From: Streptomyces griseus
GTDB lineage: Bacteria > Actinomycetota > Actinomycetes > Nanopelagicales > Nanopelagicaceae
Reading direction: 5' to 3'
Assembly: GCA_945865365.1 (NCBI GenBank)
Contig: CAMBDL010000003.1
Location: 1 to 64,000, forward strand
Length of the DNA: 64,000 nt
Below the pieces are notes generated by a model. The model did no database searches. It was given only the letters and a program-made list of their open reading frames with translations, and was not told the DNA's origin. How positions within the stretch are numbered: the first letter of the stretch is position 1; each line of letters opens with the position of its first letter. Below, in pieces: positions 6,927 through 22,198 of this stretch. The translations under genes were made by a program, and so were the position numbers.

Positions 6927-9812
6927 CTAGTTCTTGAGTAAATAGTGATCCGTAACCACTTTTAGATGCTTCTCGCTTAACTCTAATTGGTCAAGCTCGA
7001 ACAACGTGATAATAATTTGATGTTTTGGTCGTTGAAGTTTTTCAGTGATATCCACCAAATTTAAAGTCTGTTCCCAAAGGCTGAGAAGTTGAACCCTTTC
7101 AGGCTCAGTCCACTCTTCTTCATGATTCTCGTATTCAACCGACTTTTTGGATATTTGGATTTGTAAGCGAGGTTCTGCCATTTCGATCCACCTTACGAAT
7201 CGACCCTGAATTGCTGTGGCTTTACGACCCAATTGATCGCCAATCTCTTCTAGATCATTTCCACTGTTAAACAGAGTAAGGGCAAGTAAATCCTCTTCAA
7301 GTGTCCATCTCTTACCTGACCGACTGCCACTAACGTCGCTTACTTCAGAGACAGATTCAGATTTAATTCTAGGCAAAGGTTTGAGATCGGAAATTTCAGA
7401 AAGACTCTCTGAGCCTCGACATCCAGTGCTCATCCATAGATGACACCCAAAGAAGTTTCCATTTCTTCCACTCTTAACTTCATAGGCTCCAAGATCACAT
7501 TTCTTGCATCGCTTAACCCCATCTTTTGGATGATTTTCACAGTTGTAGATGCTGGGAGTCTCTACGTCCATTTCCGTCGGTTCACCACAGATAAGACATG
7601 GTGGCGTCTTGAATTTACAGACGGGCCAGTTTGTGCAGGAAAGACCTCGCACTTTCTCTTTTTTAATTAGCCAACCCGATTTGCATGAAGGACAGTTGGA
7701 AATCTTCGATTCTTCGAAACCAATATGTTCTCCACTTTCAGATTTCTGCATCTCAAGAGCGAAGGTTGATGGGGCCTTGATTGAAGAAATTACATGAGTT
7801 GCTTTTCTGGCTCTAGAAATTCCTACATAAAAAACTCGCCGCTCAGACGCATTTGGAAAACTAAAATCTTGATCTCTAACTAAGTCTAAAAGTGGATCAT
7901 CTTGAATTAAAGATGGAAAGCCTACGCCCGAGGAATTGACATCAAGAACGATTACATGGTCGGCTTCTAATCCTTTAGCCCTATGTATGGTGGAGATAGA
8001 GACTGGGCCCGCCCAAAGGCCATCGACTTCAGAAAGTTTAGGCAAACTACGGTTGTATCTAGCGATTATAAATAGCTCGCTGTTAGGGTCTTGGGCGTCC
8101 TTACCAATCTCAGTAATAACTTTCTTTATATTATCTACATGGGTGATTGGATCTGTATCCCAATAAAAGTTGAGTGATTGGTCGTATTTAGCTGTATCTC
8201 CTTTTGCGATCAATTCCTTAGGAATTTGACGAGAATTTTGCATTACGAATTCTCCTGAATACTGACAAAGACTCTGAGGCATCCGAAAAGTCTCACTCAA
8301 AAATAATTGTTCCCGCTTTTTCTCCCAGTTACCCAGACTGATCATAATTTCAGGATCACTGCCCGCAAATTCATTAATGGCTTGCCAGTCATCGCCTACG
8401 AAAGTAAATTCAATACTTGGATTATTTGCTTTGAGGCTCTCAATTAGAGCCCAGCGATCTTTTGAAATGTCTTGGAACTCATCAACCATAATGTGTTTAT
8501 AGGGTAAAAATTCACTTGTGGCATTAAGAATTTTTGTCGCCTCAAGAATCAAACCCGTAAAATCTGTTTGTTTGATTCTGTTTAGTTCAGACAGATATTG
8601 TTCGTAGAGCGATAGGAATATCTTGCCGAAGACTACTTCTCTATCAGTCTTGCACTTGGCCAGCAAATCTTCACCCTTGAAGTCTCCCGCCCGATAGAAG
8701 CCCAGAAATCTCTTCGTCAATTCGAATATTTTGGAAGTGTAACCAGCCTTATTTGCTGCCTCGAGTATCGCAGCGGTACTCATTGGGCGAATGGGTATCT
8801 CGAAATCTCGAAGGTATTTCTCAAGTTTACTAATTAGTTTTCCATCAAGAAGATCTTGATACGAAAGATTTATCAAAGAAGTTTTATTCACTTTATGTGT
8901 TTCTACTTTAGAAACCATTTCTTCGACATATTTCTCTGAATCAATCCAAGGTAAGGTTTGATTATTACGATCTATCCCAAAGTATTCAATGTAGATTCCC
9001 TGAAAAAGACTAAAGTCTGGTCGGTACCACAATCCTGTTCCCTTAGTCTCTTCATACGGTGCTTCATACTTGTATGGAACCTGATTGCAAAAAAGGTAGT
9101 TTGATATCAACCACTCACCATGACTTTTAACCCTGTCTCCCGAAAGGGTCAATGGAATACCGCTTCTTACAAACTGTGCATACTCTTCAATGTTTTTGAA
9201 CTCGTCATGTTGAAAGTAGGGAACAAGTAATTGAGAAAAAAACTGCTGAAGTAATTTTTTTGTATTCTCGTCAATTCCTTGGTCATAGAACTTCTCGATG
9301 AATTCGATTAAATCCTTATCCTTGCTAAAGGCGATGCCCTCAAGAGATTCCATCGAATTGAAATCAGATGGTGAAGCTTTCCCGAGTTGATTAACACTTT
9401 TGATAATCACTTGTCTTGCAAAACCATGAAATGTACGGCTGACTACGTCTAGATCCATCTTTTCAGCTCGTTCAGCAATTTCTTCCGCAGCCTTCTTGTT
9501 GAAGGCCAAAAGGAGAGTTTCTGGACCTGTGACTCTCTCATCTGTGATCAAGTACTTCGCACGTCCCAAGAGTGCAGAAGTTTTTCCCGTTCCAGCTCCT
9601 GCGACTACAAGCGTCTCTGGGGCAAAGGAGGTGGCGACTTTTTGCTGAGATTTATTAAGTTTTTTCGTCAGGGTATAGGTGAAAAGCTCTTTGTACTTAC
9701 TTCGAGCTTTTCTCTCTTTCACGCCTCTACGCAAGCTGATGAAGTTAAATACATCTACCTCTATCTGGCGTTTCTTGATAGCAAGTGAACGAGGGATCAG
9801 ATTTTTAGCCAT
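6927..9812 (-). CDS. UvrD/Rep-family (SF1) helicase, HelD/helicase-IV-like, with C-terminal zinc-ribbon region
   Basis: 961 aa; Walker A 'VVAGAGTGKTSALLGRAKYL'; 'IMVDEFQDIS' motif II; 'FVGDDWQAINEFAGSD' motif III; 'STIHRAKGLEADHVIVLD' motif V; 'RRVFYVGISRARKATHV' motif VI; Cys-rich C-terminal zinc-ribbon repeats. Confidence 0.92.
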   Translation of the reverse strand: MAKNLIPRSLAIKKRQIEVDVFNFISLRRGVKERKARSKYKELFTYTLTKKLNKSQQKVATSFAPETLVVAGAGTGKTSALLGRAKYLITDERVTGPETLLLAFNKKAAEEIAERAEKMDLDVVSRTFHGFARQVIIKSVNQLGKASPSDFNSMESLEGIAFSKDKDLIEFIEKFYDQGIDENTKKLLQQFFSQLLVPYFQHDEFKNIEEYAQFVRSGIPLTLSGDRVKSHGEWLISNYLFCNQVPYKYEAPYEETKGTGLWYRPDFSLFQGIYIEYFGIDRNNQTLPWIDSEKYVEEMVSKVETHKVNKTSLINLSYQDLLDGKLISKLEKYLRDFEIPIRPMSTAAILEAANKAGYTSKIFELTKRFLGFYRAGDFKGEDLLAKCKTDREVVFGKIFLSLYEQYLSELNRIKQTDFTGLILEATKILNATSEFLPYKHIMVDEFQDISKDRWALIESLKANNPSIEFTFVGDDWQAINEFAGSDPEIMISLGNWEKKREQLFLSETFRMPQSLCQYSGEFVMQNSRQIPKELIAKGDTAKYDQSLNFYWDTDPITHVDNIKKVITEIGKDAQDPNSELFIIARYNRSLPKLSEVDGLWAGPVSISTIHRAKGLEADHVIVLDVNSSGVGFPSLIQDDPLLDLVRDQDFSFPNASERRVFYVGISRARKATHVISSIKAPSTFALEMQKSESGEHIGFEESKISNCPSCKSGWLIKKEKVRGLSCTNWPVCKFKTPPCLICGEPTEMDVETPSIYNCENHPKDGVKRCKKCDLGAYEVKSGRNGNFFGCHLWMSTGCRGSESLSEISDLKPLPRIKSESVSEVSDVSGSRSGKRWTLEEDLLALTLFNSGNDLEEIGDQLGRKATAIQGRFVRWIEMAEPRLQIQISKKSVEYENHEEEWTEPERVQLLSLWEQTLNLVDITEKLQRPKHQIIITLFELDQLELSEKHLKVVTDHYLLKN

Positions 9813-9814
9813 TG

Positions 9815-10720
9815 TTAGCGAGTCTTAGCCTTAAACGGTACAGAGGCACTAGGTAATTGAGGATGTGCGATGGGGTAGTACAACTGACCAATTCGATTCA
9901 GCATTTCTGGCAGAATTTTCGAAACAGCGATTACGTCACCCAATGCAGTATGGGCATTGATTATGCGTTCATTGAAACCATTTATTACGGTGTCCAATTT
10001 GTAATTGGGTAGGTCAATGGTGTTTCTCGCCAACCAAAGAGTGTCTAAAGCTGGAATCAAGTCGAGGTCATGCCCAGCCTCATTTAATTCATATGCTAGA
10101 AAGTTTTCTTCGAATCGAGCGTTATGAGCCACGATTATTGAGTCTTGGATTAACTCTAGAATTCTTCCGCTTGCCTCATCAAAAGTGGGTGCACCAGTAA
10201 GCATCCTTAATTCGATGCCATGAATGTCTGTGCGACCCACATTTCCATCTTCAGGGTTGATCAGTGTTTCGAATCTATCTAACTCATTTCCATCCCTGTC
10301 GATTTTCAGGATTGCAATCTCAAGAATTTTGCTTCCAGGGGGATTGAACCCTGAGGTTTCCAAGTCGATAATCGCAAATGGACCGTCAAGTTCATGTATT
10401 CCGCTCTTATCTGCGAATCCAAACAATTTACCCTTTTCACCCGCTTGTGCGAATAAGGGTCCAGAATAAGTTCGATTACCGCTGGCCGAACCAGCCTTCT
10501 TTGTAGAGGGAGCTTTTGGTTTTGCAGGTGTAGGTGCAGGCGGTTTAGGAGTGTAGGTAGGTGCTTTCTTTGCTGGGGAAGAAGTTCTTGCGGTACTCGA
10601 GTAGGTAGATTTCCTAGGCGAAGCCCCTTTCTTAACTGGCTGCTTCTTTGGAGATGAAAAAAGCATGGAGGCGAATTTGTACATACCCCAGAGGATTGCC
10701 AAGGTAACTATTAACTCCAT
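9815..10720 (-). CDS. DnaQ-like (DEDDh) 3'-5' exonuclease with N-terminal transmembrane segment and Pro/Lys linker
   Basis: 'FAIIDLETSGFNPPGSKILEIAI' ExoI motif, 'IIVAHNARFEENFL' ExoII, 'NAHTALGDVIAV' ExoIII; N-term MELIVTLAILWGMYKFASMLF hydrophobic. Confidence 0.88.
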   Translation of the reverse strand: MELIVTLAILWGMYKFASMLFSSPKKQPVKKGASPRKSTYSSTARTSSPAKKAPTYTPKPPAPTPAKPKAPSTKKAGSASGNRTYSGPLFAQAGEKGKLFGFADKSGIHELDGPFAIIDLETSGFNPPGSKILEIAILKIDRDGNELDRFETLINPEDGNVGRTDIHGIELRMLTGAPTFDEASGRILELIQDSIIVAHNARFEENFLAYELNEAGHDLDLIPALDTLWLARNTIDLPNYKLDTVINGFNERIINAHTALGDVIAVSKILPEMLNRIGQLYYPIAHPQLPSASVPFKAKTR

Positions 10721-12018: not shown

Positions 12019-12047
12019 TTGAAGCTGGGGTCAATAGTTTCTATGAT
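12019..12047 (+). promoter_or_regulatory. Sigma70-type promoter for the GHKL operon (TTGAAG-17-TATGAT)
   Basis: TTGAAG 12019-12024, TATGAT 12042-12047, 17-nt spacer, 33 nt before ATG 12081. Confidence 0.5.
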
Positions 12048-12080
12048 TAGGTGCCAAAGTATTCTCCCTAAAGGAATCTA

Positions 12081-13532
12081 ATGACCTCAAAGAAATTCGA
12101 CATCACCCCAGACATACGTCTGTTGGTGGATATTGGCGAGGCTAATTACGAGGTGCCACAAGCAATAAGTGAACTCATCGCAAACTCAATGGATGCACGA
12201 TACCTGGATGAAAAAGTAAAAATTGAAGTATTTATTGATGACAATGAAATTTCAATCATTGACAATGGAATCGGAATGACAGAAAACATCTTGGCGGAAG
12301 CATTGAGATTAGCAGCTCAAATGGATACCGTCACTGGAAATACAAAAGCAAGAAAAGGAATGTACGGACTTGGACTAAAGGCAGCCTGCGCGAGTCTAGG
12401 TAAACATTGGAATATCGTTACCCGTCCAGAAGGCGATCCTAACCAATATTCAGTTGAAATTGATCTTGTTGACTGGCTCAAGAAGAAGGACAGAAAGAAT
12501 TGGGAAGTTGAGGTCAAATCCGAGAAATTTAAAAAAGGAGAAGGACCAATTGGTGACCGTGCTCACGGTACGGCTATTACCATAACAAAGCTCAAGGAAA
12601 AATTCGTTATGGTGACCGCTGTCACTGAAAAATTGGGAATGGCTTATAAACCACATCTCGAGTTTGGTGATTCAATTTTTGTAAATTCAACTTTGGTTAC
12701 ACCTAAGACTTATACGTTAGTAGAAGATAGAAGATATGAAATAGATTTGGAAATAAATGGCTATAAAGTAACTGGCTGGTACGGATTGGATACTAAAACT
12801 CACAATAGTGGTGATTATGGAATAAACATTTATCGTGAGAAACAACTTGTAGAAGCCTGGAACAAAGATTTCTTGAGGGCACACCTCATGAGTTCAAGAG
12901 TGGTTGGTGAGATTGATCTCCCTTTTGTAGCTGCAAATTTCCATAAACTTGGATTTAACAAAACTTCTGAAGAGTGGCGCTTGGTTAAAAAATATATGAC
13001 AGAAGCACTGAAACCAGCTGTAAAGGCTTCCGGCCGAATGGCTCAGGGCAAGAAGGATAACTTGCGTCAGGCCAAGGCAATTCGTGGATTAGATTTAGCT
13101 TTAGGTCTGATTTCGCCAGAAGATCAGAATTTTGATGGCATTATTGATATTGCTACCGGCGAAGATAATATAAAAACTTCTACTCCATCAAGGCAAACCC
13201 AAAATGTAGTAACTGGCAATTTTCAAACCCTAAAAATAGGCGAAGACGAAATTCCTATTTCTTATGTTTTTGAAAAGTTAGACGAAACAATCCCCTGGGA
13301 CTATATCTTTGATGAGGACACGGGAGATTTGCAAGCGGTGATTAATACCGAATCTCTAATTTACACGGAGACCACAGATATTGAACTGATAGTGGTTATG
13401 GCTTTAGCCGAAGCCGTTATGGCTTTTTCCATAAAGCATCGAGGACTTGAATACATTAAAGCTAAAGAAAATCGAGATAATTGGATGCACTTGGTCATAA
13501 AAAGTCGCCCGAAGTCCTGGGTAAGAAAATGA
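12081..13532 (+). CDS. GHKL (Hsp90/MutL/MORC-like) ATPase
   Basis: 483 aa; N-box 'QAISELIANSMDA', 'ISIIDNGIGM', 'KGMYGLGLKAAC' = GHKL ATP-binding motifs. Confidence 0.9.
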   Translation: MTSKKFDITPDIRLLVDIGEANYEVPQAISELIANSMDARYLDEKVKIEVFIDDNEISIIDNGIGMTENILAEALRLAAQMDTVTGNTKARKGMYGLGLKAACASLGKHWNIVTRPEGDPNQYSVEIDLVDWLKKKDRKNWEVEVKSEKFKKGEGPIGDRAHGTAITITKLKEKFVMVTAVTEKLGMAYKPHLEFGDSIFVNSTLVTPKTYTLVEDRRYEIDLEINGYKVTGWYGLDTKTHNSGDYGINIYREKQLVEAWNKDFLRAHLMSSRVVGEIDLPFVAANFHKLGFNKTSEEWRLVKKYMTEALKPAVKASGRMAQGKKDNLRQAKAIRGLDLALGLISPEDQNFDGIIDIATGEDNIKTSTPSRQTQNVVTGNFQTLKIGEDEIPISYVFEKLDETIPWDYIFDEDTGDLQAVINTESLIYTETTDIELIVVMALAEAVMAFSIKHRGLEYIKAKENRDNWMHLVIKSRPKSWVRK

Positions 13533-14179
13533 CAAAGGATATTGAATCCGACAAATTTACCAATTTAGTGGTGGCGTGGAATAAATATGATTCGATGCCA
13601 TTTAACGAGTGGGTGTTACAGGTATCGGAGTCATACTTTTTAAGTGGATTGACCCTGAAAATGGCTTCTAATTTTCTCAATTGTCAGCCGGCTGAACTTC
13701 AAGCAGTTTTAAACCTAGCAATGCTTGAGGATGAAAATCTCATTTTGTTAGCAAAACTTAAGCCACCGAGCACGACATGGTTTAGCTTAGCCGCAGCCTC
13801 CACAGATGGTCTCAAAGCAGCCATTCAAGCACTCATGGAAACTAAGGATCATAAATCTCCTTTCCTCGTGGTTGAAAGTGCAATCAGAGAGGTTGAAGGG
13901 CCCACAGTCTTTGAAAGAATTGCCGGACTCAGCTCTGAAGTTTTTGGTCATTCGGCTAAGAAGGCACAAACCTACGGACTATTAACCGACAACGGGATAA
14001 AAGCTTTGAAGGGATGGCAGACAAGAGTTAAATCCGGAAAAACTCTAACGCCTGCACAAATGGCATATGCAGATGGATTACTTCGAGAGTTAGTGACAAA
14101 TGGAGCAATAACACGCGAAACAAAGGATGGCGATAAAGAACTTTGTGACGAAATTTTAGATGCTTTAGGCTATGAATAG
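13529..14179 (+). CDS. Unknown 216-aa protein, translationally coupled (ATGA) to the GHKL ATPase
   Basis: MTKDIESDKFTNLVVAWNKYDSMPF...; ATGA overlap 13529-13532. Confidence 0.8.
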   Translation: MTKDIESDKFTNLVVAWNKYDSMPFNEWVLQVSESYFLSGLTLKMASNFLNCQPAELQAVLNLAMLEDENLILLAKLKPPSTTWFSLAAASTDGLKAAIQALMETKDHKSPFLVVESAIREVEGPTVFERIAGLSSEVFGHSAKKAQTYGLLTDNGIKALKGWQTRVKSGKTLTPAQMAYADGLLRELVTNGAITRETKDGDKELCDEILDALGYE

Positions 14180-17100
14180 AAACTCAGGACAAGCTTCAGA
14201 CGATTTTAAGTCGCTAAGTGTAAGAAGTTTTTACTCCACTACTGGACATCGGATATTAAACGAAGCTCTTACTCCAATCCTGTCCCTGTCAACTAACTAT
14301 GACCGACTTACTGGATATTTTACTGTTGAGTCATTAGCTTCAGTCGCAGCAGGGTTGGAAGCTATTTACCGTAAAAGTGGAAAGATGCGATTGGTGATTG
14401 GAATTCATGACGTACCAGGAGATTTATTGGCAGCAAGGGCGCTAGGAAGTCTGTTACCAGAGACCCTAGTTAATCAAGTAAAGGAAAAATTTTTCGTTGA
14501 GGTCGGACAGCTGTCAGACATGACTTCCAAGAGTGCAATAGCGGGTATTGCCTGGATGCTCCGATTAGGTTTATTGGAAGTTCGGGTGGCTTCCCCGAAA
14601 AGCCAGCAAGGTATTTATCATCAGAAACGAATGATTTTCAAAGATTCAAACGGAAATGTAATTGCGGGTACTGGGAGCCTGAATGAAACAATAGGTGGTT
14701 TGTACAACGTTGAGGAGATGCAATTCAGTTTCTCATGGAAAAGTGTGGAAAACCCGACTCTAGAGTTGGTTCATAGTTTTGAGCAAATCTGGAAAGGCCT
14801 TGAGCCTGACATAGACATAATCCCACTAGATGAAGCGTTTGCCACGGAAATCTTGGAAAAATTAGGGAATCCATCTAATCCCTTTGAGGAGCTTTCATCT
14901 TTAAGAACTGCTAAAAATATTGATTTCACTTCACTCATACAACTCATACGTACTTCATCTTCGTTCACACCCTTCAATCTATCTTTTGCCAGCCTATACC
15001 CTCACCAGGAACGTGTTTTTCATGAATCTTTAAGTAGATGGCCAGTCAGAGTGATGTTGGCTGATGAAGTGGGTCTGGGAAAAACACTAGAAGCAGGAAT
15101 CTTGATTTCCTATATGTTGCGGATGAAACTAGTTCAAAATGTCACAATTCTTTGCCCCGCAGGGTTATTGAGACAATGGCAAGAAGAAATGGATCGACAC
15201 TTCAAACTAGATTTTTGGATTTACGAATCCGGGAGTAAATCATTTGTTTCTGCTAATTCTGAACACATAAGTAGCGTTTCAAGCAATGCCCTCAGATCGG
15301 CCCCTAAATTAAAATTAGTTTCGGCTCAATGGGCGAGATTGAATGAAAACGAGTTTAAGAAACTATTGCCTGAAATGCTCGTTGTTGACGAAGCTCATGC
15401 TGCACGTGTGAATGTAGATCAATACGGCTCCAAATCAACTCGACTATGGAAGCTTTTGGATTCTGTGAAGGAGTTAATCCCTCATGTCTTATTGTTGACT
15501 GCTACCCCGATGCAGGTTCACCCATCTGAATATCATGGGCTTCTAAATCTCCTAGGACTTCCAGGCCAGTGGAAGAAATTCGCAAAGTATGAAGAATCAC
15601 TGAAAATTGTAAGCACTCAGTCTAGTTCGATAGGCCTGAATGAGGCTAAGACAATGGCCGACTTGTTACTTTCATCATTTGAATCCTATTCCTGGTTACC
15701 TGAATTGCTTACAAGCAAAGAGTCTCTTTTAATTATGGAATTGCGGCAATCTCAAAGTCAAAGTTCAGCTGCATCGGCAATTCTCATTCAGAACCAGCTG
15801 GAGGTATTTAGGAAGATTCTGACTAAAGTACACCCAGGTCATTTCCTTACTTGTAGAAATACAAAAAGCGGATTAGAAAAGTTTGGATACAAATTTCCTG
15901 TCCGGAAATTTGACGCACCAGAGATAACAATGAGTGGAAAACTAGAAAAGTATGAGTGGGCCGTTGAAAGTTATCTTTCTCAGGCATATGGTAAAACGGA
16001 AGAGTCGCTAAAACCTGGTGGTAAGTTTCCAATAGGTTTTGCCAAATCTGGTTTTTACCAAAGATTAGTTTCTTCGCTGTTTGCGTCTCGAGCGAGCCTT
16101 CTCAAAAGGAAAGCGAAACTTAATCTTATTGGAGAGGCTCTCAACGATTCAAATTCTGAATTGCTAATCAAACTTTTAAGTGATTTTGACTTTGAAGATG
16201 AAGATTTAAATTCGGACGAATTTGGTCAGTTAGCGCCCGAAATAGATGGTCAAAATGGCCTAAGTAAAGTTCTGGAGAACGTTAAACAAGCCATAATTCT
16301 TGAAAATTCCTACATCGAGGAGCTGCTTCGAATCTTGGATGGAGTGGGCGAAAGCATTGAAAACCATGATCCCAAATTTTCAGTGGCCATGAAGTCGCTT
16401 GAAAAGTTCTTAGGTGAAGGACCAGTTTTAGTCTTCTCTCGCTATACAGATACCCTTGACGGATTTCTAAATCTATTTTGTAACTCTCATTTATTGAATC
16501 AAGTACCAGGATTTGCACTTTACACCGGGGGAAAAGCATGGATTCAAACTTCTATGGGAGTCGTGCCTGCAACAAAATCAGATGTCACGGATGCCCTAAA
16601 TAGTGGCGTGATTTCCTTAGTCTTTTGTTCAGATGCTGCTTCTGAGGGCTTGAACTTGCAGACTGCAAAGACTTTAATCAATTTAGACGTACCGTGGAAC
16701 CCAGCACGTCTTGAACAACGGATTGGGCGTATCGCTCGTTTGGGTCAAAAATCTGCTGAAGTAAACATCATAAATTTGTGGTACCCGGATAGCATTGAAG
16801 CAATAATGTATGTCCGTCTATTGAGTCGACAAGCGGATTATCAACTTGCTGTTGGTGAAGCTGCAGATATCTTTGCAGATGCCATTAGAAATGAAGTACG
16901 TAACAAGTTTGCTGGCGAACAAGTGAGTACAAAAAATGAGTACTTAGAATTGCAACGAGTACGTGAGGATTATCAAAGAATCGCACTGGAAAAGATTTGG
17001 CAAACTGATGGAGATTTGCCCCCTGCGTCCACTAACCTTAGAATTGACTTACTTGAGTTTATTAGGTTGTCTGATGCTGAACTTGATACCTCTAGATACT

Positions 17101-17543
17101 CAAGTGAGCTGACCGCGGAACCAGGGACCCCAAAATCTTTCACACTGTTGCATCCAGCATTTGATGAGATTGGCGAGCTTCTAACCTCAGTCGAGAACCT
17201 AGGTAATTCAAACTTATGTCTCATTTTGGATGATAAAAAGTTACTTGCATTTTGCACTTATGATCAGTCAGGTCGCATAAGATTGCTGAACATCATGTCA
17301 CTTGGCCGAATTTTTCAATCTATTTGTGGGAAATTCACTTTGAATGAGTCAGATTTCTCTGGAGACTCTTTTGAGGAGACACACCTAAGTATTCGCTTGA
17401 GAAACTTTCGGCTAGAGCAGTCAAATATTCCCAATCATTTGTATGCAACAGTCCCTTTTGAAGGGATTTTTGCTCCTTGGAGCGAACAAAGCTTTATCAA
17501 TTTAGAGGTTCAGGAGTTATGTAAAGTGAATGTAGAGTCCTAG
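14172..17543 (+). CDS. PLD-nuclease-like domain fused to SNF2/RapA-type helicase
   Basis: 1123 aa; '[25 protein letters not shown]' = PLD HxK(x)nGSxN; '[18 protein letters not shown]' Walker A; '[12 protein letters not shown]' DEAH; '[36 protein letters not shown]' motifs V/VI. Confidence 0.93.
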   Translation: [1123 protein letters not shown]

Positions 17544-17545
17544 TT

Positions 17546-18094
17546 ATGAAGGTTAGATTGGTAAGGCCGAGTTGGTACAAGAGTGAACCCACAGCAGAGG
17601 CCAATGAGGGCGTTAATTTGCTGGATGGTGTTTGGCGAGAGGCAACAAATCTATTCATACTTCAAGGAGAGGTAAGAAAAGGATTAGGAAAATCAGAACC
17701 TCTGGGAATCCAACCCTTTCTCAATGATGTAATTTCTCAAAGATTTCTGGATTCTGGCTGGACGGGAGATGAAGGCAGATTTACAAAGGGACAAACTTGG
17801 TTTCGGATTACATTTAGGCACCAAATGAGCCTTGGTAGTGATTTCTATGATGCGATTCGATTACCAAAGGCAGAAGATGTCAAACAATGTGTGATTCTTG
17901 CCGCCGATGACGATTTCCTCAAAGTTATCACGCCACGCGATTGGCGGTCTTTATGTTCATTCTCCAAGCTTTCTGCTCAACTGGCGCAGATGGATGGGAG
18001 TTTTTCTCCCCCACTTCTCATCGGCGAATTAAAACCCTTGTCCGCCTTATCCCAAAAATCACATGGATTAATTTACGGATCGAGATTGCGTTAA
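17546..18094 (+). CDS. Unknown 182-aa protein, candidate restriction endonuclease by position
   Basis: MKVRLVRPSWYKSEPTAEANEGVNLLDGVWREATNLFILQGEVRKGLGK...; starts 3 nt after the helicase stop; last gene of operon opposite a methyltransferase. Confidence 0.75.
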   Translation: MKVRLVRPSWYKSEPTAEANEGVNLLDGVWREATNLFILQGEVRKGLGKSEPLGIQPFLNDVISQRFLDSGWTGDEGRFTKGQTWFRITFRHQMSLGSDFYDAIRLPKAEDVKQCVILAADDDFLKVITPRDWRSLCSFSKLSAQLAQMDGSFSPPLLIGELKPLSALSQKSHGLIYGSRLR

Positions 18095-18096
18095 AT

Positions 18097-19353
18097 TTAC
18101 CTTCGCATCTCATGGGCAAGAACTTTTCCCACTCGCTCAATCAATCCGATTACCAAAGCGTTCCCCATAAAGAATGCCCGTCTTCCATCCTTCAAAAGGT
18201 TGCCTGATTGATTGATACTTGTCCAACCGTCAGGGAATCCGTTTAAGCGCTCGAGTTCCATAGGCGTCAATCTTCGATAGCCACGGCTTGTCTTAATTAT
18301 GTGTTTAAACCGCGAAGGAGTGGAGCCTCCTTCTCCAGTTAGGATAGTTCGACTTGGGTTTGTTGGTAAGTCAGGAAATGCCATTTTCCCTTCTGCGTAA
18401 TTGTAATTGGTGCCGCTGCCCTTATGCGTTCTGGCAATACTTTTAGCCCCCTTTAGATATTTCCATTCTTTAATTCGATTCTCTTCCACCCAATATTCAT
18501 TTGGGACTTTAGAGTCTGGGATAAGTACATTCCCGAGGACCATAGGTTTGTTTGACAACACCGCTTCGGTTTTAACCGTATAGGCAATCCCATTTGAATA
18601 ATATCCAGAGGTGAGGAAAGGAGACTTGTTCGTTTTTTTGTTGAAAGATGCACTAATACGATCTGCAGATTCATCCAATTTCACTTCATGCAGTTCATGG
18701 GAAAGCTTCTTAATTGGTAAAGCACGCGCAAGTATTCCTAACTTTGAAATGACTAATTCCGGTGAAGGCCCCTCAAAGTTCCGCTTGCATCTGGTTGCGA
18801 CGATAAATACTCGAATACGCCGTTGAGGGAATCCGTAGTCTGCGGCATTCACCACTCTCCACTCAATGTTGTATCCGACATCACCGAGAGTCTTCAGCAT
18901 GATAGCAAAATCTCGGCCTCTTTGACTTGAGGGAGATTTAAGGAGCCGATCGACATTCTCAAGAAAAACAAATTTTGGTTTTTGGTCTTCCACAAGACGC
19001 AGTATTTCCCACCACAGCACACCCTTTTTCCCCTTAAGCCCCTTAGCGCTGTTGAGTGATTTTGCAACAGAATAATCCTGGCATGGAAATCCCCCAACAA
19101 GTAAATCTGTTTTTCTTGGGAGAGATTCGACTAGGGCAATATCTTCATTGCTATGACCGTCTGCTCCGAAGCGAGCAACGTAAACATCAGAGGCGTGCTG
19201 AACTTTTGTCCCTGGTTCCCATTGATTTGAGAAAATTGTTTTCCAGCCAGCACGTGCTAGACCAATGCGAAATCCCCCAACACCCGCAAACAACTCTGCG
19301 ACATTTCCGACAGGGTTCGCTGGCTCTCTGAAACCTCTTGATTTATAAGCCAC
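18097..19353 (-). CDS. DNA (cytosine-5-)-methyltransferase
   Basis: 418 aa; 'VAELFAGVGGFRIGL' motif I, 'GGFPCQDYSVA' motif IV, 'FVFLENVDRLL' motif VI, 'GFPQRRIRVFIVATR' motif VIII, 'GNALVIGLIERVGKVL' motif X; GTG start with GGAGG RBS. Confidence 0.95.
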   Translation of the reverse strand: MAYKSRGFREPANPVGNVAELFAGVGGFRIGLARAGWKTIFSNQWEPGTKVQHASDVYVARFGADGHSNEDIALVESLPRKTDLLVGGFPCQDYSVAKSLNSAKGLKGKKGVLWWEILRLVEDQKPKFVFLENVDRLLKSPSSQRGRDFAIMLKTLGDVGYNIEWRVVNAADYGFPQRRIRVFIVATRCKRNFEGPSPELVISKLGILARALPIKKLSHELHEVKLDESADRISASFNKKTNKSPFLTSGYYSNGIAYTVKTEAVLSNKPMVLGNVLIPDSKVPNEYWVEENRIKEWKYLKGAKSIARTHKGSGTNYNYAEGKMAFPDLPTNPSRTILTGEGGSTPSRFKHIIKTSRGYRRLTPMELERLNGFPDGWTSINQSGNLLKDGRRAFFMGNALVIGLIERVGKVLAHEMRR

Positions 19354-19440
19354 TTATTTCCTCCACCGAGAAGCATAGGAACTTCCACTGACAATAGGTG
19401 GGATCGACTCGCAGGCATTAGCCCCGCTACCTTCAAAGTA

Positions 19441-19463
19441 CCTAGTAATCGACGCAAACTAGG
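19441..19463. repeat. Inverted repeat CCTAGT-N11-ACTAGG upstream of methyltransferase
   Basis: Perfect 6-bp arms at 19441-19446 and 19458-19463. Confidence 0.35.
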
Positions 19464-19477
19464 CGTAGCATTTTTTT

Positions 19478-19798
19478 GTGAATATAAGGAAACCCGAAGA
19501 TCTCCTAGCTGCTTGGGAAGAAGTGCATGGAGTGCTGGAAAGTAAGGACTTAAGGTGGCGCTTTCTTCACCATGAATGCATGAGAGATATTTTGAAACAG
19601 CGACCAGAGCGGATTGCTGTTGCAGTAAGGCGGAATGCCAAACTACATGACGTCTTAGCAGACCTCTATGCACAAGACAATGCAACCCAGGATTTTCTTG
19701 ACAAGCACTACCCATATAGAGACTCACAACCTGAAGAGCTGGGAAGCCGTATAGAGCAGCGAGAAAAAGATGGTGGACGCTGGGGAAGACGATTCTGA
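19478..19798 (+). CDS. Hypothetical protein (106 aa), GTG start
   Basis: MNIRKPEDLLAAWEEVHGVLESKDLRWRFLHHECMRDILKQRPERIAVAVRRNAKL...; soluble, charged composition typical of a real protein; no clear RBS. Confidence 0.5.
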   Translation: MNIRKPEDLLAAWEEVHGVLESKDLRWRFLHHECMRDILKQRPERIAVAVRRNAKLHDVLADLYAQDNATQDFLDKHYPYRDSQPEELGSRIEQREKDGGRWGRRF

Positions 19799-19945: not shown

Positions 19946-20073
19946 AATCATTATATCTTTATGTGGAATTGTTTATGAAAGTCAGTGAATTCCTGTGTTT
20001 TACAAGAATTAGGCTTTTATAGAGTCTGTTAAATTTGGTGAATGCTTAAATAGGCGAAATATAGTTAAATTAT

Positions 20074-20280
20074 TTGATAACCGCATGTTTGCTGCAATCC
20101 CTTTAAGCAGTCATTGGTAAATCAAAATTCACTACATGCGATTAAAAAGAATTGAATTTCACTTCGATATTTTGATACCGCATGTTGGGGCATTTTCTCT
20201 TGACTGTTTATTAGTAAAGCAAAATTTCATACATGCGGTTAGGAAAAATCGAATTTAACTTCTATATTTTCAAACCGCAT
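20074..20280. repeat. 97-bp-period degenerate tandem repeat with inverted ACATGCGGTT motifs (iteron/ori-like or recombination arm sites)
   Basis: CCGCAT(G) at 20081, 20178 and 20275; CATGCG at 20135 and 20232; every offset is 97 bp. Confidence 0.8.
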
Positions 20281-20303
20281 CACTATAACACTATGTACTA
20301 TAC

Positions 20304-20421
20304 CTACTATAGTAGACCATATTTTGTAGAGCTACGTGTATAAAAATAATTATTTTTTCCGTACGCACATTACTGCAAAGATAGTAACTATAGTAGAGAT
20401 AGTGGATAGTCTACATAGTAG
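20304..20421. promoter_or_regulatory. Cluster of palindromes CTACTATAGTAG / ACTATAGTAG / CTACATAGTAG plus AT-rich palindrome AAAAATAATTATTTTT
   Basis: 20304-20315 perfect 12-bp palindrome; 20387-20396 repeats its last 10 nt; 20411-20421 CTAC-ATA-GTAG; 20342-20357 perfect 16-bp palindrome. Confidence 0.5.
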
Positions 20422-20426
20422 GGAAG

Positions 20427-20957
20427 TTAATACTTTTTAGGTCTGCCTGGCCCTTTTTTTATTTGATTGAGACGCCGATATGACGTGCCAACGGCATCTC
20501 TTGAAGAAATTTCTATTTGCTCCAGTTCTAAAAGTTCAAATAGTGTGAATTTGAATTGAATCCTATCTTTGAGGTGGCAGGAAGTCTCTGATGTGAAGAT
20601 AGTGTGCCAAAGATTTATTTCAGAGATTTGTCCTCCTCCCTCGCTAGCCTCGTCAATGAGTTGAAATAAGCGGAACCGTAAAGAGGAATTAAAACACCTC
20701 TTTTCAGAGCCAGATGCGCAACACTTGATAGGAGTCAACTCGGCATTTTTTTTGTAAGTTGAGCCCATAAGAATCCCTAGATTTTTATACTGAAAGTAAA
20801 TTTCTAGGTATGCAAGTGGAAAATATCCACCTTGTATTTGAAAAAAACTAAAAAAGCTGGCATGTTTTTTGAAAAAGGAATCGTAGATCGAGACTCCCAA
20901 GAAATCAGCTAGCTCATACATATCGAGACTCTCGCCCATGTACTTATCAAATATCAT
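20427..20957 (-). CDS. Unknown protein with C-terminal AT-hook-like GPGRPKKY, downstream of integrase
   Basis: 176 aa; GRP-type AT-hook at C-terminus; codirectional with the integrase. Confidence 0.65.
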   Translation of the reverse strand: MIFDKYMGESLDMYELADFLGVSIYDSFFKKHASFFSFFQIQGGYFPLAYLEIYFQYKNLGILMGSTYKKNAELTPIKCCASGSEKRCFNSSLRFRLFQLIDEASEGGGQISEINLWHTIFTSETSCHLKDRIQFKFTLFELLELEQIEISSRDAVGTSYRRLNQIKKGPGRPKKY

Positions 20958-21037
20958 AATTGCCTTTCATTAATTGTTGGATGTTTGAGACCAGTGAGAG
21001 CTCAGAGGAACCTGAGCTCTCACTGGTACTTTTGGAA

Positions 21038-22198
21038 TTAGATGGCTCTTTTGTTTAGGCGGACTTGCTCTTTTAGAAGAGCATCCTCAGCTCTTTTAGC
21101 AGCTTCTCTAACCGCGCTACTTTCAGGAGTGATGTAGTGGTCTTCGAGTGTTTTTGTTGATGTGTGACCAGAGAACGCTTTAGTGGTTCCTAGGTCTGCT
21201 CCTCTTAGAAAGTTGGTAAAACAGGACTTCCTAAGTTGATAGCGCGTATAGCACTTCACCCCAGCGCGGTCGCAGAGCTGCCGCATCCAGTCTTTGTCGA
21301 GCGTCTCGTCTCGAAGTCGACCAATCGAATTTGGAAAGAGAACGTCGTTATCTTCAACCCACCTTGCCTTGTTGAGAGCTTGATGGCGCTTATGAGCAAG
21401 AAGAATTGATATTTGCCTTTTAGTCAAAGGCTTGGCGGTACTAGAGCTGGTTTTTGTAGGTGCAAAGTGAAGAGGTTTACCTTTCACCCGTTGAACTTGA
21501 CGTTCATTAGTGATCAACCAACCCGCATCAGTTTGGTGTAGGTCCGTCCATTTAAGCCCCATGATTTCTGAGGGGCGAAAACCCAATTCAGCACCAATCA
21601 TTAAGCGGGCTAAATCAAAGGGAGACTCCTTTGCAACTCTGTAGAGTTTTGTTAAATCCTCTAAAGGAATTGCTTGTGAAATTACTGGTTTCATAGAAAG
21701 CATCCTTACGCCTTCTGCTGGATTATGAACCTGCTCATGATTCTGCAGACCGTCAGCGTAGGCTTTTGACAGAGTGCGTAAGACTCCAAGAATTGATCCG
21801 TGGCCATAGCCCTTGTCTGCAAGGGTGTTGAGTAGATCTTTGATTGCAGCTGGTGATAGCTGCGATGCAGGCATTGAGCCAATATATGGTGTGATCAGGT
21901 TTTTGATTGTAGATGAGTAGAACCTAGTGCTATTTGGTCGAATTAGATGGCGTTGAGTTGGTAACCAATTATTTAGGTATTCCTCAACGGTTTGTTTTGG
22001 ATTAACCACGTAAGTGCCTTTAAAACGCTTGCGTGCTGTTACTTGTTCTACTAACCAAGTTTCAGCCTCAATCTTCTTTTTGAAAGATTGTGTACGTCTA
22101 ATGCCATGGATGTCATAACATGCCACAGTCCATCGATTACGGTTTTTGAATATAGTTCCCTCGCCATTTGCACGAGTTCGTTTCTTTCCAGTGTTCAT
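21038..22198 (-). CDS. Tyrosine recombinase / phage-type integrase
   Basis: 386 aa; N-terminal 'GTIFKNRNRWTVACYD' AP2-like arm-binding region, SAM-like 'TVEEYLNNWL', catalytic 'GAELGFRPSEIMGLKWTD', 'YQLRKSCFTNFLRGADLGTTKAFSGHTSTKTLEDHYI'. Confidence 0.95.
   Translation of the reverse strand: MNTGKKRTRANGEGTIFKNRNRWTVACYDIHGIRRTQSFKKKIEAETWLVEQVTARKRFKGTYVVNPKQTVEEYLNNWLPTQRHLIRPNSTRFYSSTIKNLITPYIGSMPASQLSPAAIKDLLNTLADKGYGHGSILGVLRTLSKAYADGLQNHEQVHNPAEGVRMLSMKPVISQAIPLEDLTKLYRVAKESPFDLARLMIGAELGFRPSEIMGLKWTDLHQTDAGWLITNERQVQRVKGKPLHFAPTKTSSSTAKPLTKRQISILLAHKRHQALNKARWVEDNDVLFPNSIGRLRDETLDKDWMRQLCDRAGVKCYTRYQLRKSCFTNFLRGADLGTTKAFSGHTSTKTLEDHYITPESSAVREAAKRAEDALLKEQVRLNKRAI

What the first reader, a model, noticed from the sequence alone, without database searches (positions are those of the whole stretch)
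12019..19353. Candidate composite defence system: GHKL/MORC-like ATPase + 216-aa unknown + PLD-SNF2 helicase + 182-aa unknown, with convergent 5mC methyltransferase
Seen: four + strand genes coupled end-to-end (ATGA overlap at 13529-13532, 8-nt overlap at 14172-14179, 2-nt gap at 17544-17545) behind one sigma70-like promoter, facing a cytosine-5 methyltransferase. Motifs show a GHKL ATPase (ELIANSMDA/DNGIGM/GLGLKAA) and a PLD nuclease domain fused to a SNF2 translocase. Known: bacterial MORC/MutL-like GHKL ATPases linked to R-M-type helicases and methylases were described from comparative genomics (Iyer, Abhiman, Aravind), and PLD proteins, SNF2 helicases and 5mC methylases co-occur in DISARM. 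Inference: this is a self/non-self discriminating system in which methylation protects host DNA, the GHKL ATPase acts as clamp or sensor, and PLD-SNF2 translocates and cuts. The combination has no drmA/drmB/drmE-like gene here, so it is not recognisable DISARM, and two of its subunits are unassigned.
Basis: partly seen in the sequence, partly recalled or inferred. Interest (0 to 1): 0.88.

Follow-up and report, generated by a model that had tools for sequence, protein, structure and literature searches.

The report
Six-gene GATC defence cassette, unarmed recogniser
A freshwater actinobacterium carries a mobile six-gene anti-virus cassette in which a restriction enzyme that seems to have lost its cutting residues appears to have been kept only to recognise the DNA word GATC, while a separate motor protein with a nuclease domain is predicted to do the cutting.

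Summary
In detail: four tightly coupled + strand genes (GHKL ATPase, 216 aa, PLD-SNF2, 182 aa) converge on a 5mC methyltransferase. It is incomplete: a sixth gene (106 aa, 19478-19798 +) belongs to the unit. The block 12038-19798 recurs at another chromosomal site in a related genome at 83% nucleotide identity, with no homology outside, and all six genes are under strong purifying selection. The first three genes also occur in two other genomes of the genus and on a Haladaptatus plasmid; the fourth gene is seen in one of those two (the other contig ends).
Two gaps are filled. Methyltransferase relatives sit beside Sau3AI/MutH or BglII/BstYI restriction enzymes, so its mark is probably a GATC-containing site. 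The 182-aa protein is a distant BglII/BstYI/BamHI-like protein (profile E 4e-6, 0 of 500 shuffles; the eight best structural matches are OkrAI and BamHI) without catalytic acids. The 216-aa protein is all-helical.
Best reading: an R-M-like defence in which an unarmed GATC enzyme finds unmethylated DNA and the ATPase and PLD-SNF2 motor destroy it. It fails DISARM and MZA membership and falls in the MORC/paraMORC R-M kind of Iyer et al. 2008, as a new variant. Activity is untested.

The parts
12019..12047 (+). Sigma-70-like promoter TTGAAG-N17-TATGAT of the operon
   Evidence: the same hexamers and spacing (TTGATG-N17-TATGAT) precede the second copy in L001 (junctions printed)
12038..19798 (.). 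Conserved mobile block (cassette) holding exactly six genes
   Evidence: blastn to L001 9956-17715, 83.2% identity over 7764 columns, nothing outside except a tRNA
12081..13532 (+). GHKL+S5 ATPase, paraMORC-like (P0001, 483 aa)
   Evidence: Pfam HATPase_c_3 1.6e-19, Morc6_S5 2.7e-5 below its cut-off; NCBIfam BbrUII/HgiDII 1.4e-10 and MzaB 1.1e-9, both far below cut-off; MORC-type S5 motif with Gln in place of Arg, GINIYREKQL
13529..14179 (+). All-helical 216-aa subunit (P0002), possible ParB-like helical DNA-binding part; found only in this system in the searches made
   Evidence: AlphaFold2 13 helices, pLDDT 78, pTM 0.50; Foldseek ParB/Spo0J probability 0.72-0.92 but E above 1; no significant family hit
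14172..17543 (+). PLD (HKD) nuclease domain fused to a RapA-like SNF2 translocase (P0003, 1123 aa)
   Evidence: invariant HKD and helicase motifs across five homologues
17546..18094 (+). Unarmed BglII/BstYI/BamHI-type protein, proposed GATC reader (P0004, 182 aa)
   Evidence: hhalign E 3.6e-6, probability 87.5%, 0 of 500 column shuffles; two best non-self hits among 395 ORFs; Foldseek top eight = OkrAI and BamHI; no conserved Asp/Glu between W72 and residue 98, Arg78 and Arg87 invariant
18097..19353 (-). Cytosine-5 DNA methyltransferase, GATC-type family (P0005, 418 aa)
   Evidence: PADLOC PDLC03329 5.9e-142; relatives beside Sau3AI/MutH or BglII/BstYI enzymes
19478..19798 (+). 106-aa gene of unknown function, divergent from the methyltransferase; last gene of the conserved block (P0006)
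   Evidence: Conserved in L001 17395-17715, 87% amino-acid identity, dN/dS 0.06; no family hit

Best explanation
The cassette is a mobile, R-M-like defence system aimed at a GATC-containing site. The methyltransferase puts 5-methylcytosine on that site and so marks host DNA. The 182-aa protein is a former GATC-type restriction enzyme of the BglII/BstYI/BamHI branch that has lost its catalytic acids and keeps the site-recognition role: it marks unmethylated foreign sites without cutting. The GHKL ATPase, with the helical 216-aa subunit, closes on DNA as an ATP-gated clamp once a site is bound and recruits the PLD-SNF2 protein, which translocates along the DNA and cleaves it with a dimeric HKD site. 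Shown by computation: gene content, conservation, purifying selection, families of the three catalytic proteins, remote homology of the 182-aa protein and loss of its acids.
For: Exact six-gene block at two unrelated loci with dN/dS 0.03-0.08 on every gene. Core genes in four genomes of the genus and, for the first three, in Haladaptatus. Methyltransferase relatives paired with Sau3AI/MutH enzymes (G114, G618, G095; Priestia, Lactiplantibacillus) or BglII/BstYI enzymes (G066, G015, G043, G045; Macrococcus, Psychrobacillus). The 182-aa protein lies beside the methyltransferase in the same convergent position as those active BglII-like enzymes. Its homology to them: hhalign 3.6e-6 with 0 of 500 shuffles; ranks 1-2 of non-self among 395 ORFs, five of the best ten BglII-like; best Pfam hit of its orthologue is Endonuc-BglII, E 0.21; Foldseek top eight of 350,542 chains all OkrAI or BamHI. 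Catalytic acids absent. A prediction met: G095 has the 182-aa gene without an adjacent methyltransferase, yet a 78% identical methyltransferase lies on the same contig, although 10 of 135 genomes of the genus have one above 70%. GATC is the rarest of 256 tetramers relative to expectation in the cassette, ratio 0.46 against 0.83 in the chromosome of this window.
Against: The P0004 model is weak (pLDDT 65.5; four of five models near 46; Foldseek E 0.012 at best; TM 0.45) and its alignment has three sequences, two of them 84% alike. The alignment of the central hairpin differs between profiles. Pfam does not reach its cut-off. G060 shows no methyltransferase, but its contig ends inside the system and the genome is 82% complete. 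GATC is also depleted in the flanks of L001 and throughout the Haladaptatus plasmids, so depletion is only weak support. In G095 the methyltransferase has its own Sau3AI-like partner, so it may serve that system alone. No activity data exist.
Confidence: 0.5

Rival explanations
1. The 182-aa protein is an active or conditionally active nuclease with a moved active site, and the cassette is a BglII-type R-M system assisted by a GHKL/PLD-SNF2 complex.
For: Fold homology to active REases; active sites are known to migrate in PD-(D/E)xK enzymes (established knowledge); D102 is invariant and residue 99 is acidic in all three.
Against: No conserved acid in the hairpin that carries the catalytic D and E in BglII-type enzymes; invariant Arg78 and Arg87 near those places; the PLD domain already supplies a complete HKD motif.
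Confidence: 0.13
2. Two unrelated systems lie side by side: a GHKL/216-aa/PLD-SNF2 defence module that does not need methylation, and a GATC methyltransferase with a decayed BglII-like partner.
For: Haladaptatus has the three-gene core without the 182-aa gene; G095 has the methyltransferase paired with a Sau3AI-like enzyme; in Iyer et al. 2008 operon content is mosaic.
Against: The 182-aa gene is the fourth gene of the same operon in window, L001 and G095, 2 nt from or overlapping the helicase gene, and keeps dN/dS 0.08, so it is not decaying; the six genes move as one block.
Confidence: 0.22
3. The 182-aa protein acts as an immunity or control factor: it occupies GATC sites and blocks or times restriction, for example during establishment in a new host, rather than targeting the nuclease.
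For: An unarmed site-binder could shield sites; the system is mobile and R-M systems often need timing control (established knowledge).
Against: It is co-translated with the nuclease-motor, the opposite of usual control-gene order; the separate 106-aa gene next to the methyltransferase is a better placed regulator.
Confidence: 0.1
4. Not defence: a DNA repair or recombination module using GHKL and SNF2 proteins.
For: MutL-like ATPases and SNF2 proteins act in repair (established knowledge).
Against: Sporadic distribution, 4 of 296 genomes of the order, mobility, coupling to R-M genes, and defence-family matches.
Confidence: 0.05

Closest known systems
MORC/paraMORC-linked R-M operons (Iyer, Abhiman, Aravind 2008, PMC2292703)
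   Same: GHKL+S5 ATPase in operon with an SF2 helicase (SWI2/SNF2 or HKD-fused), a nuclease domain and a cytosine methylase; laterally mobile
   Different: Here the HKD domain is on an SNF2-type helicase, whereas the paper notes it on Rad25-like ones; an unarmed BglII-like protein and a 216-aa helical subunit are present, neither described in the text read; S5 motif has Gln where MORCs have Arg
MZA (mzaABCDE)
   Same: GHKL ATPase matched by MzaB models (7e-6 PADLOC, 1.1e-9 NCBIfam)
   Different: 37 bits against a cut-off of 850; no match to another Mza component was listed for the other cassette proteins (from memory, MZA also has a Z1 helicase, an AIPR protein and others)
DISARM
   Same: PLD, SNF2 and 5mC methylase functions; P0003 matches DrmD models (4e-54)
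   Different: No DrmA, DrmB or separate DrmC in the cassette; PLD fused to SNF2; 208 bits against a DrmD cut-off of 610. In Haladaptatus a drmABC set follows the three-gene core directly
PLD-helicase anti-phage proteins (NCBIfam NF042964; PADLOC PLD_Helicase; PbeA)
   Same: Same PLD + SF2 helicase architecture over about 900 residues
   Different: 294 bits against a cut-off of 1100; different partner genes
BglII/BstYI (PF09195), BamHI and OkrAI restriction enzymes with their methyltransferases
   Same: P0004 by profile and by model; P0005 family paired with BglII/BstYI and Sau3AI enzymes
   Different: P0004 lacks the catalytic acids and is shorter; cleavage must come from another protein
BbrUII/HgiDII restriction enzymes
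   Same: GHKL ATPase domain similar to P0001 (1.4e-10)
   Different: 40 bits against a cut-off of 550

Membership tests
MORC/paraMORC-linked R-M systems (Iyer 2008) | GHKL domain with ATP-binding motifs followed by an S5 domain | tested here: met
   HATPase_c_3 1.6e-19; Morc6_S5 2.7e-5, just below its curated cut-off; motifs invariant in five homologues
MORC/paraMORC-linked R-M systems (Iyer 2008) | MORC-proper S5 motif GhXhhpXXRhl | tested here: not met
   GINIYREKQL / GLNLYRENQL: Gln at the Arg position in all five, so paraMORC-like rather than MORC proper
MORC/paraMORC-linked R-M systems (Iyer 2008) | Operon with an SF2 helicase and a nuclease, often with a cytosine methylase | tested here: met
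DISARM | drmA helicase and drmB (DUF1998) genes present | tested here: not met
   No Pfam or PADLOC match to DrmB in the ORFs scanned; P0003 is matched by SNF2 families, not by DUF1998
DISARM | Separate PLD gene drmC | tested here: not met
   The PLD domain is fused to SNF2
MZA | MzaB over curated cut-off | tested here: not met
   37.2 bits against 850
MZA | Z1-type helicase and AIPR protein | tested here: not met
   Neither found among the cassette proteins; that these define MZA is recalled, not tested
NF042964 PLD anti-phage protein | Score over curated cut-off | tested here: not met
   294 bits against 1100
BglII/BstYI restriction endonucleases | PD-(D/E)xK fold of the BglII/BamHI branch in P0004 | tested here: inconclusive
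   Significant by profile against shuffles and top structural matches, but Pfam below cut-off and weak model
BglII/BstYI restriction endonucleases | Catalytic D...E-x-Q/E | tested here: not met
   No conserved acid in residues 72-98; Arg78, Arg87, Thr89 invariant
GATC-type 5mC methyltransferases | Methylation of a GATC-containing site | not testable with these tools
   Only neighbours and family were tested

The most novel reading that the evidence does not exclude
A previously undescribed defence system in which a domesticated, cleavage-dead type II restriction enzyme serves as the sequence- and methylation-reading subunit that directs a GHKL-gated PLD-SNF2 nuclease-motor; the site-finder and the cutter of a restriction system are split, with the finder derived from a former cutter.
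Probability: 0.42. Interest if true: 0.8.

Novelty: new variant of a known kind. Interest (0 to 1): 0.62.

Why it matters
If right, it shows how an ordinary type II enzyme can be turned into the recognition subunit of a multi-protein restriction machine, and it gives a concrete, cheap test (the GATC methylome, and binding without cutting) for how GHKL/MORC-type ATPases in bacterial defence choose their targets. The role of prokaryotic MORC-like ATPases, proposed as DNA looping in 2008, would become directly testable in a system with a predicted site.

Tried and rejected
Pfam, NCBIfam, PADLOC and PDB sequence searches of the 216- and 182-aa proteins, and family searches of the 106-aa protein, gave nothing significant. 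IMG/VR scans with A1, A2 and P0008 found no relatives. The genome-contig scan with a single sequence found only one relative. Searching the phylum (298 genomes) with the 216-aa profile gave only the own genome. A literature search for DISARM + MORC returned nothing; the YprA/ARMADA and BREX-related papers do not mention MORC proteins. DISARM and MZA were considered and rejected on defining features. The Haladaptatus drmABC adjacency was considered as a sign of a DISARM link, but it is a single case. GATC depletion was tested as evidence for the target and found only weakly informative, because flanks and plasmids show it too. Island borders: no shared 14-mers were found between the tRNA-Leu region and the integrase region. 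The base-contacting residues of BglII-type enzymes were not assessed in P0004.
Full report
OBSERVATION. The promoter-like site at 12019-12047 is a weak consensus match, but its hexamers and 17-nt spacing recur in front of a second copy of the cassette (junctions), which makes it credible.

UNIT. The cassette of genome G002 (L001) aligns with window 12038-19798 at 83% identity and stops sharply at both ends. The flanking genes differ, so this is one transferred block at two chromosomal sites. Comparing the two copies, dS is 0.8-1.1 and dN/dS 0.03 to 0.08 for all six, 0.06 for the small gene, so all six are maintained. The integrase at 21038-22198 is outside the shared block.

DISTRIBUTION. The 216-aa protein is a specific marker. 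It was found in 4 of 296 genomes of the order, all in one genus, in no other genome of a 298-genome phylum sample, and on one plasmid, of the archaeon Haladaptatus (43% identity). In all five places it sits between the GHKL ATPase and the PLD-SNF2 protein. The 182-aa protein follows in window, L001 and G095; G060's contig ends inside the PLD-SNF2 gene; Haladaptatus has no recognisable fourth gene. In G060 and G095 a ResIII/Rad25-like helicase and an 88-aa gene precede the GHKL gene.

ATPASE AND NUCLEASE-MOTOR. P0001 has a GHKL domain and an S5-like domain; nearest named relatives are BbrUII/HgiDII and MzaB, both far below cut-off. Its S5 motif is MORC-like with Gln for Arg. P0003 is a PLD + RapA-like SNF2 fusion; the residues H150, K152, D158, S169, N171, E172 and the helicase motifs are invariant in five homologues from bacteria and an archaeon, so catalytic competence is likely.

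METHYLTRANSFERASE. P0005 belongs to PADLOC family PDLC03329 (5.9e-142). On plasmids, relatives at 42-48% lie near Sau3AI/MutH-family or BglII/BstYI-family enzymes; two others checked lie near neither. Within the genus, orthologues at 71-78% lie beside Sau3AI/MutH-like enzymes (G114, G618, G095) or BglII-like enzymes (G066, G015, G043, G045); G064 has neither that I recognised. Sau3AI cuts GATC, BstYI RGATCY and BglII AGATCT (established knowledge). I infer a GATC-core specificity for P0005, not yet the exact motif or the methylated cytosine.

THE 182-AA PROTEIN. A pairwise profile comparison with the BglII/BstYI-like enzyme next to a P0005 relative gave E 9e-4. Against a wider BglII/BstYI profile the value was 3.6e-6, probability 87.5%, score 43.5, while 500 column shuffles reached at most 24.7 and three unrelated alignments at most 20.0. 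Adding the four genus enzymes gave 1.2e-5. In a blind comparison with 395 ORFs from the session, the two best non-self hits and five of the best ten were BglII/BstYI-like; the ORF set contained loci fetched because of that family, so it is a control on ranking, not a database search. Of all Pfam models, the only hit listed for its L001 orthologue was Endonuc-BglII, at E 0.21. An AlphaFold2 model made without templates (pLDDT 65.5, pTM 0.68) had OkrAI and BamHI, enzymes whose sites contain GATC (established knowledge), as its eight best matches in the PDB (probability 0.35-0.92, E 0.012-0.22). Sequence and structure therefore point the same way, though each alone is modest. The catalytic acids are missing: between Trp72 and residue 98 no Asp or Glu is conserved in the three sequences, and Arg78 and Arg87 are invariant near the expected positions. 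The exact pairing of columns in this hairpin differs between alignments; the absence of conserved acids does not depend on it.

THE 216-AA PROTEIN. All-helical, 13 helices. ParB/Spo0J DNA-binding domains are the only targets with Foldseek probability of 0.7 or more among the 50 listed, but at E above 1. I treat a ParB-like DNA-binding or clamp-like part as a lead only.

MECHANISM. The best reading is a split R-M system: P0005 marks self, P0004 reads unmarked GATC-type sites, P0001 with P0002 acts as an ATP-gated clamp, P0003 translocates and cuts. G095, with P0004 but no adjacent methyltransferase, carries a 78% identical methyltransferase on the same contig, as this reading predicts; the background frequency in the genus is 10 of 135, so this is supportive and not decisive. 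GATC is the most under-represented tetramer of the cassette (15 against 32.9 expected; chromosome ratio 0.83), but related DNA shows the same tendency.

KNOWN OR NEW. Iyer et al. 2008 described MORC/paraMORC ATPases with SF2 helicases (SNF2-type among them, HKD domains on Rad25-like ones), nucleases and cytosine methylases in mobile R-M operons (PMC2292703), so the general kind is known. The six-gene composition matches no curated PADLOC or NCBIfam system, and an unarmed type II enzyme as a subunit was not found in the papers searched; most subscription papers are not held, so absence there is weak evidence.

LIMITS. No experiment, no methylome, three P0004 sequences, one archaeal case, and no complex prediction. 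Figures of Iyer et al. were not visible, only text and legends.

Noticed in passing
window 6927-10720 (-): UvrD-like SF1 helicase (961 aa, with a Top1-type zinc ribbon) next to a DEDDh exonuclease (301 aa), probably another defence or repair pair in the same low-GC region
   Followed up: partly
window 21038-22198 (-): Tyrosine recombinase beside housekeeping genes (ppx/gppA, eno); GC drops from about 0.47 to 0.42 in the region 6-22 kb, suggesting an island, but no flanking direct repeats were found
   Followed up: partly
window 20071-20410: AT-rich stretch with a 19-nt direct repeat (TATTTGATAACCGCATGTT) and long imperfect inverted repeats between the cassette and a 176-aa unknown gene (20427-20957 -)
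   Followed up: partly
window 20990-21027: Perfect 16-bp inverted repeat with a 6-nt loop just downstream of the integrase gene
   Followed up: no
L024 492-12359 (Haladaptatus plasmid): The three-gene core is followed after 365 nt by drmA, drmB and drmC homologues; single case, could be a composite with DISARM
   Followed up: partly
L012 7954-14870 (G114): SNF2 helicase + MORC-proper ATPase + 271-aa gene + Sau3AI/MutH enzyme convergent with a 77% identical methyltransferase: a sister arrangement of the kind in Iyer 2008
   Followed up: yes
L073/L011 (G095 contig 58): Dense defence contig: Sau3AI R-M, kinase-helicase 1130 aa, PLD protein 479 aa, a GHKL-like 374-aa-plus protein and the core module within about 38 kb
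   Followed up: partly
L001: Public record titled Bifidobacterium breve MAG (CAMDBB010000004.1) has the same length and coordinates as contig 4 of G002, a genome of the window's genus; title or placement looks wrong
   Followed up: no
L033 and L024 (Haladaptatus plasmids): Strong plasmid-wide GATC depletion (ratio 0.08-0.41) with a MutH/Sau3AI enzyme and two cytosine methylases nearby
   Followed up: partly
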